Source of the DNA: Chlorobaculum parvum NCIB 8327
GTDB taxonomy: Bacteria; Bacteroidota; Chlorobiia; Chlorobiales; Chlorobiaceae
Direction: 5' to 3'
Length of the DNA stretch: 64,000 bases
Assembly (NCBI RefSeq): GCF_000020505.1
Contig: NC_011027.1
Span: 1,224,001-1,288,000 of the forward strand
Shown here in pieces: positions 26,631 through 51,216 of this stretch (its first letter is position 1; the number at the start of each line of letters is the position of its first letter). The position numbers and the translations under genes were made by a program. The notes under the pieces were generated by a model. It made no database searches. It had not been told where the DNA came from and saw only the letters and a list, made by a program, of their open reading frames with translations.

Positions 26631-28088
26631 TTAACCTATTCTTTTTCTTAATCTTGCAACTGGAATTTGCATTTGTTCACGGTATTTTGCAACCGTTCTG
26701 CGGGCGATCTTCACCCCTTTTTCGCCAAGCAGTTCGGCCAACCGGTCGTCGCTGAGCGGCTTTGCCGGATTCTCCGCTTCGATAATCTCACGAAGTTGCG
26801 CCTTGATGATTCTCGACGACAACTCTTCGCCCTCGTCGGTCGAAAGCGCGCCGCTGAAGAAGTATTTCAACTCGAACACACCATAGCGGGTCTGGACGTA
26901 CTTGCCGTTGACCGCGCGGCTGATGGTTGAAATATCGTAACCGCTCTCTTCAGCCACGGTCTTCATCACCAGCGGCTGGAGATAGCGCGGGCCGTCGATG
27001 AAAAAACGGGCCTGGGCGATCAGCAAGGTCTCCATTACCTTCAGCAGAGTCTGCCGCCTGATCTGCAGCGCCGTGGCGAAGTCGTTCGCGCGCTGGAGCT
27101 TTTTGCGCATGAACTGCCGGTCTGCGGTAGGCACCATCCGCTTTGCAAGCACCTCGCGATACTCGTCCGAGACCCGGACCGACAAGCTACTCCGATCGTT
27201 CAGCACGGCGGTCAACGCGCCGTTTTCATAGGTCACGATGAAATCCGGAGAGATATAGTGCCCTCCTTCATCGACAAACACACCGGCAGGATGCGGATCG
27301 AGCGACGTAATCACTCCGATAGCCTCTTCGAGCTGCTGCTTGCCGATATCGAGCTTTTTCAGCAGGCGGTCGAAGCGCTTGTTCATGAAATCGTCGAACG
27401 ACTTTTCGAGGATCGTGCGAGCAAGCTTCACCGCTGCCGGATCGTGGTCGTGATCGAAGACCGAGAGCTGCACCAAGAGTCGCTCGCGGAGATCGGCAAC
27501 CGCCACGCCGGGCGGATCGAGATACCAGATGCGCTTCTGGATCGCCCGGATTTCAGCTTCGTCGGTTTCGATATCCGCCTCCCGGAGCCCGTCGATGATC
27601 ACCTCCGGCTCCTCGGTGAAGTAGCCGTCGCCGTCGAGATTGCCGAGAATTTCGGCAGCAATGAGCACCTCGCGCTGACCTATCCCCTCCTGAAACGACA
27701 ATTCGCGTAATAACTGCTCGTGGAACGTATCGTGCTGCACAGCCTGGAAAAAGCGATCCTCGCCACCCGATGACGAGCCGGACGATCGGGCAGAGATGCC
27801 CGGAGCCTTGTCGCTGCTGCGCTCTTTGAGAGCAGCACGGTCGAAGCGCCCTTCCGAATCGAACATCTCCTGAGAATCGTCAACCCCGGCCGCCGGAGCG
27901 GTTCCGTCCCGAGAATCAGGCTGGCTACGCTCCTCGACCAGTTCGAGCATCGGATTTTCTTGCAGTTCTTCGTAAATCCGCTGTTCAAGCTGGTTGAGCG
28001 GAAGCTGGAGCAACTGACTGGTCAGCACCTGCTGGGCGGTCAGTTGGAGGCTCTGGGTCTGCCTCTGCTGTAGCCTGATCTCGGCCAT
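26631..28088 (-). CDS. rpoN: RNA polymerase sigma-54 factor
   Basis: An alternative sigma factor for promoters with GG at -24 and GC at -12, needing an AAA+ activator. It has 485 residues. The Gln/Leu-rich region I (LQQRQTQSLQLTAQQVLTS) is followed by an acidic region II, the core-binding domain, and the C-terminal RpoN box ARRTVAKYRE (about 463-472). It lies 21 bp upstream of hslV and nine bp after the DUF3109 gene. A near-consensus sigma-54 site occurs at 50221-50236 in this window. Confidence 0.95.
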   Translation of the reverse strand: MAEIRLQQRQTQSLQLTAQQVLTSQLLQLPLNQLEQRIYEELQENPMLELVEERSQPDSRDGTAPAAGVDDSQEMFDSEGRFDRAALKERSSDKAPGISARSSGSSSGGEDRFFQAVQHDTFHEQLLRELSFQEGIGQREVLIAAEILGNLDGDGYFTEEPEVIIDGLREADIETDEAEIRAIQKRIWYLDPPGVAVADLRERLLVQLSVFDHDHDPAAVKLARTILEKSFDDFMNKRFDRLLKKLDIGKQQLEEAIGVITSLDPHPAGVFVDEGGHYISPDFIVTYENGALTAVLNDRSSLSVRVSDEYREVLAKRMVPTADRQFMRKKLQRANDFATALQIRRQTLLKVMETLLIAQARFFIDGPRYLQPLVMKTVAEESGYDISTISRAVNGKYVQTRYGVFELKYFFSGALSTDEGEELSSRIIKAQLREIIEAENPAKPLSDDRLAELLGEKGVKIARRTVAKYREQMQIPVARLRKRIG

Positions 28089-49595: not shown

Positions 49596-50063
49596 ATGAA
49601 AAAAATTGCATTGCTCCTGTTGCTGATTTTCGCCCTCTCGGCTCCCGCAGGCGCTGAACAGAATCCTGACTCCGCAGGCATCATCGAGGTTTGCATCGAC
49701 AATATCCGCAGTTCCGACGGCACGGTCGGCGTCGCGCTGTTCAACACCAAAAAGGGATTCCCCGATAAAAGCGAAAGGGCCATCAAGGGCAAAAGCGTTC
49801 CAGCCGGAAAGCAGTGCATCGTGCTTTTCAAGAACGTTCCTTACGGCACCTACGCGGTCAGTGTACTGCACGATGAGAATGGCAACGGCAAAATGGACAA
49901 GGCGTTCCTCGGCATTCCGAAAGAGGGGTTTGGCACATCAAACAATCCGAAGCTGAAAATGGGCCCACCTTCGTTTTCGGACTCCCAGTTTGACCTTGCC
50001 CAGCAGAAAATAACCCTGAACATCAACATGAAGTACCTCCGCAACCCCGAAGAGAAAAAGTGA
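49596..50063 (+). CDS. DUF2141-family exported protein
   Basis: A 155-residue protein with a clear signal peptide (ALLLLLIFALSAPAGA, cleavage near residue 20). The mature part has DGTVGVALFNTKKGFPDKSE and VPYGTYAVSVLHDENGNGKMDKAFLGIPKEGFG, the DUF2141 pattern. It is probably periplasmic or extracellular. The repeat DENGNGKMD resembles a calcium-binding loop, but the family is not known to bind calcium. Function unknown. Confidence 0.82.
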   Translation: MKKIALLLLLIFALSAPAGAEQNPDSAGIIEVCIDNIRSSDGTVGVALFNTKKGFPDKSERAIKGKSVPAGKQCIVLFKNVPYGTYAVSVLHDENGNGKMDKAFLGIPKEGFGTSNNPKLKMGPPSFSDSQFDLAQQKITLNINMKYLRNPEEKK

Positions 50064-50090
50064 GGAGCTCGGCACCGGCCAAAAACATCG

Positions 50091-50128
50091 AAAATGTAGA
50101 TTTTTCAAGCACACCTACAGAAATGTAG
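50091..50128 (+). promoter_or_regulatory. Candidate activator-binding sites upstream of the sigma-54 promoter
   Basis: The octamer AAATGTAG occurs twice (50092-50099 and 50121-50128), the second within the dyad CTACAGAAATGTAG (50115-50128). These lie about 95-130 bp upstream of the sigma-54 promoter, where enhancer-binding activators usually bind. The link is inferred from position. Confidence 0.3.
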
Positions 50129-50220
50129 CCTTATCCATGAATTAAGATTATTGGAGGCGAACAGTAGAAAAATCGCCAAACGCCTACGCTTCAATAGTTT
50201 AGAACAAAAGCATTCTTCGC

Positions 50221-50236
50221 TGGCACAGTAATTGCA
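50221..50236 (+). promoter_or_regulatory. Sigma-54 (RpoN) promoter
   Basis: TGGCAC (50221-50226), five bases, then TTGCA (50232-50236). This equals the sigma-54 consensus TGGCACR-N4-TTGCW, with GG and GC ten bases apart as required. It lies 50 bp before the ATG of the repeat-protein gene, with a predicted start at about 50247. Confidence 0.75.
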
Positions 50237-50286
50237 TATAACAATACAAGAAAGGCACATTTCCACGGCACAAAAAAGGACTAATT

Positions 50287-51216
50287 ATGACCTCTTTCAA
50301 CACCAAATATGGCGAGCTCAAAGGCGTCGAATTCAGAACACTCTATTCGAATGGCAAAACCGACGGCTGCCTTGTCCAGGAGGAGAATGTGCTCAGCACA
50401 CCCTACGGAGAGCTGATTCCGCAGTACGAGGCAGAAGACATGGGGCGCCGCCAGCTTAAACCTTTTTATTTCTATAAGAACGGCGCCATCAAATCGGTAG
50501 CGCTACAGACCCAAACCCTTCTTCGCACGCCGGTCGGAGGCATTCCTGCCGAGCTGGTCACCTTTTACGAATCGGGCAGTGTCAAGCGGGTTTTCCCGCT
50601 CGATGGCAAGCTCAGTGGCTTCTGGACGGCCAAAAACGAGTTTGAACTGGCTGAAGAGATGACCGTCGAATCGCCGATCGGCAGCCTTCGCGCCAAGTTC
50701 ATCGCCATCCAGTTTTACGAAAGCGGCGCTCTAAAGAGCCTGACCCTGTGGCCGGGCGAGTTCCTGACGCTGATGACGCCGGCAGGTCAGATCAGGGTTC
50801 GCACGGGTATTGCATTCTACGAGGACGGCGCGATCCGCTCGCTCGAACCGGCAGGCGTGGTACAGGTCGAAACGCCCATTGGCACCATGACCGCTTATGA
50901 CAACGATCCGCAGGGTGTGCATGGCGACCTCAATTCGCTCCAGTTCAGCCCGGAAGGCACCGTTATGGCACTCAAAACCATCGCAGAAGAGATCACCGTA
51001 ACCGATCAGCTTGGCAACGCACACCGCTTCGCCCCCAGCCTGAAGGACAACACCTGCGGCGTCGAGCGCAAAATCGTGGTACCGATGAAAGTAAGGTTCA
51101 GCGAGGGAAGAATAGTGTTCGAAGACCGACAGGAGTCGTTCAATCTCCAGCAGTGCAAAATCGAAGTTAGGCCTTACGACCGCAAAGGCGACCCAGCATA
51201 CTCCTGCGCGGGCTAA
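50287..51216 (+). CDS. YwqK-like repeat protein under sigma-54 control
   Basis: A 309-residue soluble protein with an AAGGA ribosome site. It contains about five copies of a 45-55-residue unit built around TPxG and FYExGxIKS: FYFYKNGAIKSVAL, VTFYESGSVKRVFPL, IQFYESGALKSLTLWPG, IAFYEDGAIRSLEPAG, with TPVGGI, SPIGSL, TPAGQI and TPIGTM between them. This resembles the MORN-like repeats of the YwqK antitoxin family. No signal peptide. Function unknown. The stop overlaps the convergent oxidoreductase gene by four bases. Confidence 0.75.
   Translation: MTSFNTKYGELKGVEFRTLYSNGKTDGCLVQEENVLSTPYGELIPQYEAEDMGRRQLKPFYFYKNGAIKSVALQTQTLLRTPVGGIPAELVTFYESGSVKRVFPLDGKLSGFWTAKNEFELAEEMTVESPIGSLRAKFIAIQFYESGALKSLTLWPGEFLTLMTPAGQIRVRTGIAFYEDGAIRSLEPAGVVQVETPIGTMTAYDNDPQGVHGDLNSLQFSPEGTVMALKTIAEEITVTDQLGNAHRFAPSLKDNTCGVERKIVVPMKVRFSEGRIVFEDRQESFNLQQCKIEVRPYDRKGDPAYSCAG

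What the first reader, a model, noticed from the sequence alone, without database searches (positions are those of the whole stretch)
50221..51216. Near-consensus sigma-54 promoter drives a YwqK-like repeat protein
TGGCAC-N5-TTGCA sits 50 bp before the ATG. The gene encodes a repeat protein of unknown role, and a candidate activator dyad lies about 95 bp upstream. Sigma-54 targets in green sulfur bacteria beyond nitrogen fixation are poorly known; this may define a new one. rpoN is in the same window.
Basis: partly seen in the sequence, partly recalled or inferred. Interest (0 to 1): 0.65.

Follow-up and report, generated by a model that had tools for sequence, protein, structure and literature searches.

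The report
Unnamed nitrogen-fixation gene, NifA-type promoter
In green sulfur bacteria an unnamed repeat-protein gene has the same kind of two-part control switch as the nitrogenase gene nifH, and some of its distant relatives sit among nitrogenase genes in other bacteria, so it is probably an unrecognised helper of nitrogen fixation.

Summary
The promoter is real. TGGCAC-N5-TTGCA lies 50 bp before the ATG. As a bare motif it is at chance level (6 exact in the genome, 5 for the reversed control), but only two of the six lie outside ORFs: before nifH and before this gene. In 72 of 72 assessable named green sulfur loci the gene has GG/TTG at -24/-12, and upstream two tandem dyads CTAC-N6-GTAG, 28-30 bp apart. 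The same tandem dyad lies upstream of nifH in 30 of 30 green sulfur loci examined. The textbook NifA site TGT-N10-ACA is mostly absent from both. So this is not a target 'beyond nitrogen fixation': very probably it is a stand-alone NifA/sigma-54 target. The protein is a beta-repeat protein without a named family (weak MORN_2 similarity in some relatives). Among 80 genomes of one Bacillota-type phylum, nifH is in 8 of 8 gene carriers against 11 of 72 others. Some distant relatives adjoin nifH, nifV-like or anfO genes, and most end in a cysteine-rich tail. Shown: conservation, co-occurrence, neighbourhoods. Inferred: NifA binding, induction during N2 fixation, accessory role (cofactor/metal handling or nitrogenase scaffold).

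The parts
50086..50099 (.). distal activator dyad CATCGAAAATGTAG (6 of 8 positions of CTAC-N6-GTAG)
   Evidence: a tandem partner at 28-30 bp was scored in 50 orthologues, 46 of them with a pair score of 13 or more of 16
50115..50128 (.). proximal activator dyad CTACAGAAATGTAG (8 of 8), inferred NifA site
   Evidence: same dyad at nifH
50221..50236 (+). sigma-54 promoter: -24 TGGCAC, -12 TTGCA
50247..50247 (+). expected transcription start, about 12 bp after the -12 box (inferred)
   Evidence: inference from sigma-54 geometry; not mapped
50275..50280 (+). likely ribosome-binding site AAAGGA
   Evidence: read from the sequence
50287..51216 (+). 309-aa beta-repeat protein, inferred nitrogen-fixation accessory protein
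26631..28088 (-). rpoN (sigma-54), 485 aa
   Evidence: PF00309, PF04963, PF04552 over cut-off

Best explanation
The gene is a single-gene member of the NifA/sigma-54 nitrogen-fixation regulon of green sulfur bacteria. When fixed nitrogen is scarce, NifA binds the two tandem CTAC-N6-GTAG dyads, loops to RNA polymerase-sigma-54 held at the -24/-12 box, and opens the promoter, as at nifH. The product is a beta-repeat protein that serves as an accessory factor of nitrogenase, most likely a scaffold in cofactor/metal handling or nitrogenase maturation. Shown here: the promoter and dyads, their conservation, sharing with nifH, presence of nifA and rpoN, co-occurrence with nifH, and nif/anf neighbourhoods of some relatives elsewhere. 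Inferred: that NifA is the binder, induction under N2 fixation, and the accessory role. The confidence given is for the regulatory part; for the accessory role I would say about 0.65.
For: GG at -24 and TTG at -12 in 50 of 50 first-set orthologues and 72 of 72 assessable named loci; 58-101 bp before the start in the first set. Tandem dyads: pair score 13 or more of 16 in 46 of 50 against 1 of 1000 shuffles, and in 68 of the 72. nifH: tandem dyads at 28 bp (score 13 or more in 30 of 30) and a -24/-12 box. Own genome: 9 exact dyads, 3 of them at these two promoters; at the other six I saw no sigma-54 box with TTG. Of the 30 loci that a dyad search in 18 relatives brought in, 10 show a dyad with a sigma-54 box behind it, each at the distance typical of this gene or of nifH. 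The 539-aa activator near nifH just passes the NifA cut-off (530.8 against 528.85 bits). Gene, nifH and nifA occur in the same families and in 4 of 9 genera each. Other phylum: nifH in 8 of 8 gene carriers, 11 of 72 others (Fisher p 2.6e-6, 1.1e-5 without the carrier known beforehand). Neighbours: AnfO beside the gene in L242, L269, L270; nifV-like genes in L240 and L242; nifH about 440 bp away in G099.
Against: No expression or binding data. The dyad is linked to NifA by sharing with nifH and by nifA's place, not by a binding test; two other activators with full sigma-54 domains exist in the genome. Within the order, co-occurrence rests on one clade contrast. In Chlorobia the gene was not found near nif: nifH in 0 of 75 loci within the held flanks, 42 of them with full 8-kb flanks. 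Only 8 of 398 genomes of the other phylum have the gene, one by a partial match (G445), and 11 nifH carriers among 72 lack it, so it is not needed for nitrogen fixation in general. In L264, L265, L268 and L271 I saw no nif neighbours by eye. Sporolactobacillus shows no nifH over the cut-off. None of ten non-GSB relatives shows the dyad within 350 bp. The proximal dyad sits at about -162 at nifH but about -86 at this gene, and the distal dyad of the window is degenerate (6 of 8).
Confidence: 0.78

Rival explanations
1. The promoter is sigma-54 dependent but driven by another enhancer-binding protein (the 701-aa GAF protein or the sensorless 370-aa protein), and the gene answers a different signal, such as redox or metal state, that also touches nifH.
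For: Three activators with a full sigma-54 interaction domain exist in the genome; the dyad is not the canonical NifA site (TGT-N10-ACA in 3 of 50 upstream regions of the gene, and in 2 of 30 of nifH).
Against: nifA stands about 3.4 kb before nifH and has the same family and genus distribution as the gene; the 701-aa activator faces its own sigma-54-like site before a TolC-type gene, without the dyad.
Confidence: 0.12
2. The gene is nif-co-regulated, but its product acts in general nitrogen-starvation physiology (envelope, storage, ammonium handling), not on nitrogenase. This shares the regulatory part of the best explanation.
For: Stand-alone locus in Chlorobia; one relative lies near a P-II and an ammonium transporter gene (L266).
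Against: Adjacency to anfO, nifV-like genes and nifH in other phyla; nifH in all 8 carriers.
Confidence: 0.25
3. The motif is a chance match and the gene has an ordinary promoter.
For: The motif count is at chance level by itself.
Against: Invariant GGC and TTG in 44 of 44 dereplicated upstream regions, with flanking columns mostly under 0.5 bit. No sigma-70-type site was found in 50000-50320, but shuffles give only 0.4, so this says little.
Confidence: 0.01

Closest known systems
NifA/sigma-54-dependent nif promoters (nifH of the same genome; the NifA-RpoN regulon of Mesorhizobium loti, PMC3538637, passages seen)
   Same: -24/-12 box, dyad activator sites upstream, nifA and rpoN present
   Different: the dyad is CTAC-N6-GTAG in tandem, not the textbook TGT-N10-ACA (recalled; the passage in PMC3538637 prints TGT-N10-AGA)
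AnfO (PF09582), nitrogenase accessory protein
   Same: lies beside members of this family in three loci (L242, L269, L270); accessory gene of nif/anf clusters
   Different: separate family by Pfam; not looked for in Chlorobia
MORN_2 / YwqK-type repeat proteins (PF07661)
   Same: tandem Y-x-x-G beta units; weak profile matches in 5 of 14 members
   Different: window protein itself not matched; no toxin-antitoxin setting seen; goes with nitrogen fixation
NifQ (proposed molybdenum-binding motif Cx4Cx2Cx5C per a passage in PMC4085339)
   Same: one relative (L242) ends in exactly this spacing of cysteines; other relatives have other cysteine-rich ends
   Different: the sequences were not compared; green sulfur members keep a single cysteine at the end

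Membership tests
sigma-54 promoter | GG at -24 and TTG at -12 with fixed spacing, conserved in relatives | tested here: met
   50 of 50 and 72 of 72 assessable
sigma-54 promoter | enhancer sites upstream | tested here: met
   tandem dyads
sigma-54 promoter | dependence on RpoN, mapped 5' end | not testable with these tools
   needs mutant and RNA
NifA regulon | activator site shared with nifH of the same organism | tested here: met
   30 of 30 nifH loci
NifA regulon | nifA present in the genome | tested here: met
   TIGR01817 530.8 bits, cut-off 528.85; relatives of it in 81 of 98 order genomes at E 1e-120 or better
NifA regulon | canonical TGT-N10-ACA site (recalled) | tested here: not met
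   3 of 50 regions of the gene, 2 of 30 nifH regions; so nifH itself mostly fails too
NifA regulon | NifA binding and induction without fixed nitrogen | not testable with these tools
   needs experiment
YwqK / MORN_2 protein | PF07661 match | tested here: inconclusive
   5 of 14 members, best E 2e-4; window protein not matched at E up to 1
YwqK antitoxin | adjacent toxin gene (recalled) | tested here: not met
   window neighbours are a DUF2141 gene and an HI0933-like flavoprotein
NifQ | Cx4Cx2Cx5C | tested here: not met
   window protein has Cys at 28, 257, 290, 307 only
solved fold | clear structural relative | tested here: inconclusive
   Foldseek: none at E 0.001 or below; VIA rows of Z about 6 (9e5c, CPAP G-box, LptD, OspA) lie in the range the tool calls common

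The most novel reading that the evidence does not exclude
The family is an unnamed nitrogenase accessory protein: a beta-repeat scaffold whose C-terminal cysteine tail (cysteine-rich in most non-GSB members, one of them with the NifQ-like Cx4Cx2Cx5C spacing, reduced to one invariant cysteine in green sulfur bacteria) hands a metal or iron-sulfur unit to nitrogenase cofactor assembly; and green sulfur NifA reads a DNA code of its own, tandem CTAC-N6-GTAG.
Probability: 0.25. Interest if true: 0.8.

Novelty: new variant of a known kind. Interest (0 to 1): 0.62.

Why it matters
It gives a specific, testable link between an unnamed protein family and nitrogen fixation, in a group for which my searches of an open-access library (listings only, capped) showed no paper on the nif activator site. 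It also proposes a NifA site different from the textbook one, which would explain why standard scans miss green sulfur nif targets. If the protein is needed for nitrogenase, it adds a part to a pathway that people try to rebuild in other organisms.

Tried and rejected
Further targets: exact dyads in the own genome (9) and CCTAC-N6-GTAG in 18 relatives (97 rows). From these I read 30 loci that brought in (L282-L311) and 20 further stretches (read; 19, one from the own genome); not every row was read. In one search the only dyads with a sigma-54 box 50-260 bp behind them are at the distances of this gene or of nifH. In one search the sites with 9 or more of 11 letters (L317, L325, L327, L330) lie over 500 bp from a dyad and inside ORFs; one such site (L156) lacks TTG. 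A tandem pattern with 3 mismatches in 9 genomes gave 15 places, 7 of them this gene's promoter, and its counts are not above the reversed control, so counts alone show nothing. Plasmids: no match. PHROGs: nothing significant. PDB by sequence: five WD40-type chains at E 1.5e-5 to 1.3e-4, no stretch passing alone; I take these as repeat bias. Folds: no clear relative. Sigma-54 boxes before ten non-GSB relatives: none convincing, one 10-of-11 match at -306 in L239 left open. Paper searches on AnfO, NifA and Chlorobi, rpoN and Chlorobium, C. tepidum nitrogenase, MORN repeat and nif showed nothing on this gene in the listings; of papers I saw listings, starts of abstracts and the passages.

Rows dropped and limits: column statistics used 44 of 50 regions after dereplication. 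Of 75 named green sulfur loci 3 were not assessable: L188 and L208 have too little upstream sequence, and in L235 the contig starts inside the gene (one search counts L235 in its n of 73, as the one failure; I leave it out). The first set covers 50 of 84 gene-positive genomes, nifH 30 of 80; the two sets of the gene overlap in species. The -24/-12 site was taken as the best match in the last 120 bp and the dyad pair as the best pair, which favours conserved letters; the shuffles make the same choice for the dyads. One orientation slip (TGT-N10-ACA at nifH) was redone; only one search is used. The 80 genomes are 8 gene-positive and 72 gene-negative, of 398; relatedness is not corrected.

Full report
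Observation. The -24/-12 site TGGCACAGTAATTGCA is at 50221-50236, 50 bp before the ATG of a 309-aa ORF. The bare motif is not rare enough to mean anything: 6 exact sites in the whole genome, 5 for the reversed control. Four of the six are inside ORFs; the other two stand before nifH and before this gene. rpoN is in the window.

Conservation. Orthologues are in 84 of 98 genomes of the order. In 50 fetched upstream regions the best -24/-12 match lies 58-101 bp before the start, with GG and TTG in 50 of 50; in 44 dereplicated regions GGC and TTG are invariant while flanking columns mostly carry under 0.5 bit. In an overlapping set of 75 named green sulfur loci, 72 of 72 assessable ones agree. Upstream lie two dyads CTAC-N6-GTAG, 29 bp apart in 45 of 50 (28 in two, 30 in three), the proximal one centred 72.5-99.5 bp before the -24 box; pair scores of 13 or more of 16 in 46 of 50, against 1 of 1000 shuffles. 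In the window the distal copy is degenerate (6 of 8) and the proximal one perfect.

Link to nifH. In the own genome the only other exact dyads standing before a sigma-54 box are the two at nifH, 28 bp apart. All 30 nifH loci examined, of 80 nifH-positive genomes, have a tandem pair at 28 bp and a -24/-12 box. In 30 loci from a dyad search in 18 relatives, dyads with a sigma-54 box behind them occur in 10, at 83.5-85.5 and 114.5 bp (this gene) or 160.5-190.5 bp (nifH). TGT-N10-ACA occurs in 2 of 30 nifH regions and in 3 of 50 regions of this gene. A GAF-AAA-Fis activator, next to nifV and about 3.4 kb before nifH, passes the curated NifA cut-off narrowly. Another sigma-54-like site, before a TolC-type gene facing a different activator, has no dyad.

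Distribution. Gene, nifH and nifA are each found in 4 of 9 genera, in families f1 and f2 only. From the listings, of 98 genomes 78 have gene and nifH, 12 neither, 6 only the gene and 2 only nifH; all eight mismatches are in assemblies at most 85% complete. In two genomes counted as nifH-positive (G007, G036) only the 69%-identical second type passed. This is one clade contrast, so weak by itself. Outside the order a genome scan found five carriers: Desulfocucumis, an Oscillospiraceae MAG, a Spirochaetales MAG, a Coriobacteriales MAG and Sporolactobacillus; nifH is over the cut-off in 4 of 5 (Sporolactobacillus is the miss, its locus starting at a contig end with nifV-like pieces). In 398 genomes of the phylum of the Oscillospiraceae carrier, that carrier included, 8 have the gene, one of them (G445) by a partial match. 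nifH is over the cut-off in 8 of 8 of these and in 11 of 72 gene-negative genomes; p is 2.6e-6, or 1.1e-5 without the carrier known beforehand and 4.8e-5 without G445 as well (relatedness not corrected).

Neighbourhood. Sporolactobacillus (L242): nifV-like pieces (below the curated cut-off, as pieces), AnfO, the gene, pyruvate:ferredoxin oxidoreductase. G276: the gene and AnfO, divergent from nifH, which ORFs read by eye as P-II and nitrogenase genes follow. G448: the gene beside AnfO, downstream of a nitrogenase set with the alternative delta subunit. G457: the gene near P-II and ammonium transporter genes. G099: nifH about 440 bp away, divergent. L240: a nifV-like fragment directly before it. 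L237: an ArsC-like gene behind it. L264, L265, L268 and L271 show no nif neighbour by eye. In Chlorobia the gene stands alone: nifH in 0 of 75 loci within the held flanks (42 with full flanks), an HI0933-like gene found in 67 of 75, convergent just downstream in the rows printed. So in Chlorobia the link is regulation, elsewhere it is, in part, position.

Protein. No Pfam or NCBIfam family of its own; MORN_2 matches 5 of 14 members weakly and DUF7406 nine, below its cut-off in the window protein. The AlphaFold2 model is almost all beta (pLDDT 84.6; the last nine residues are under 50) without a clear solved relative. Cys257 and Cys307 are invariant in 22 green sulfur members; Cys307 is aligned in all 14 of the wider set. 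Of ten non-GSB tails printed, eight have two or more cysteines near the end, L239 one and L270 none; an eleventh, L238, also has several. L242 has Cx4Cx2Cx5C, the spacing proposed for molybdenum binding in NifQ according to a passage of PMC4085339.

Conclusion. Regulation by NifA is inferred with high confidence, the accessory role with moderate confidence, and the metal-handling idea is speculative. On rechecking, facts were mended (nifV-like instead of nifV, the pattern counts, limits of flanks and listings, AnfO not looked for in Chlorobia); none required a change of odds.

Noticed in passing
L097 2311 (minus strand; G000:C1:63000-72000): Near-consensus sigma-54 site TGGCACGATAATTGA before a TolC-type gene (named by eye), divergent from a 701-aa GAF enhancer-binding protein; no CTAC-N6-GTAG dyad beside it. 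Looks like an independent sigma-54 target.
   Followed up: partly
L098 4451-5563: A sensorless sigma-54 activator lies between genes that look like a SPOR-domain gene and lnt, about 2 kb from a gene that looks like fmoA (all three named by eye).
   Followed up: no
G003, G005, G007, G010, G020, G036, G039, G045, G059, G060, G075, G086: A second nifH type (68-69% identity), in several of these genomes with a second NifA-like activator (51-55% identity): possible alternative nitrogenases.
   Followed up: no
own genome, dyad counts: CTAC-N6-GTAG is scarcer than the reversed pattern (9 against 39 in the own genome; likewise in the 18 relatives); the cause was not tested.
   Followed up: no
L239, 306 bp before the relative's start: A 10-of-11 sigma-54-like match upstream of the Spirochaetales relative.
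   Followed up: no
window 49596-50063: A DUF2141 protein gene ends 223 bp before the ORF; among 49 of 75 green sulfur loci where a relative was found, it is within 350 bp in 10.
   Followed up: partly
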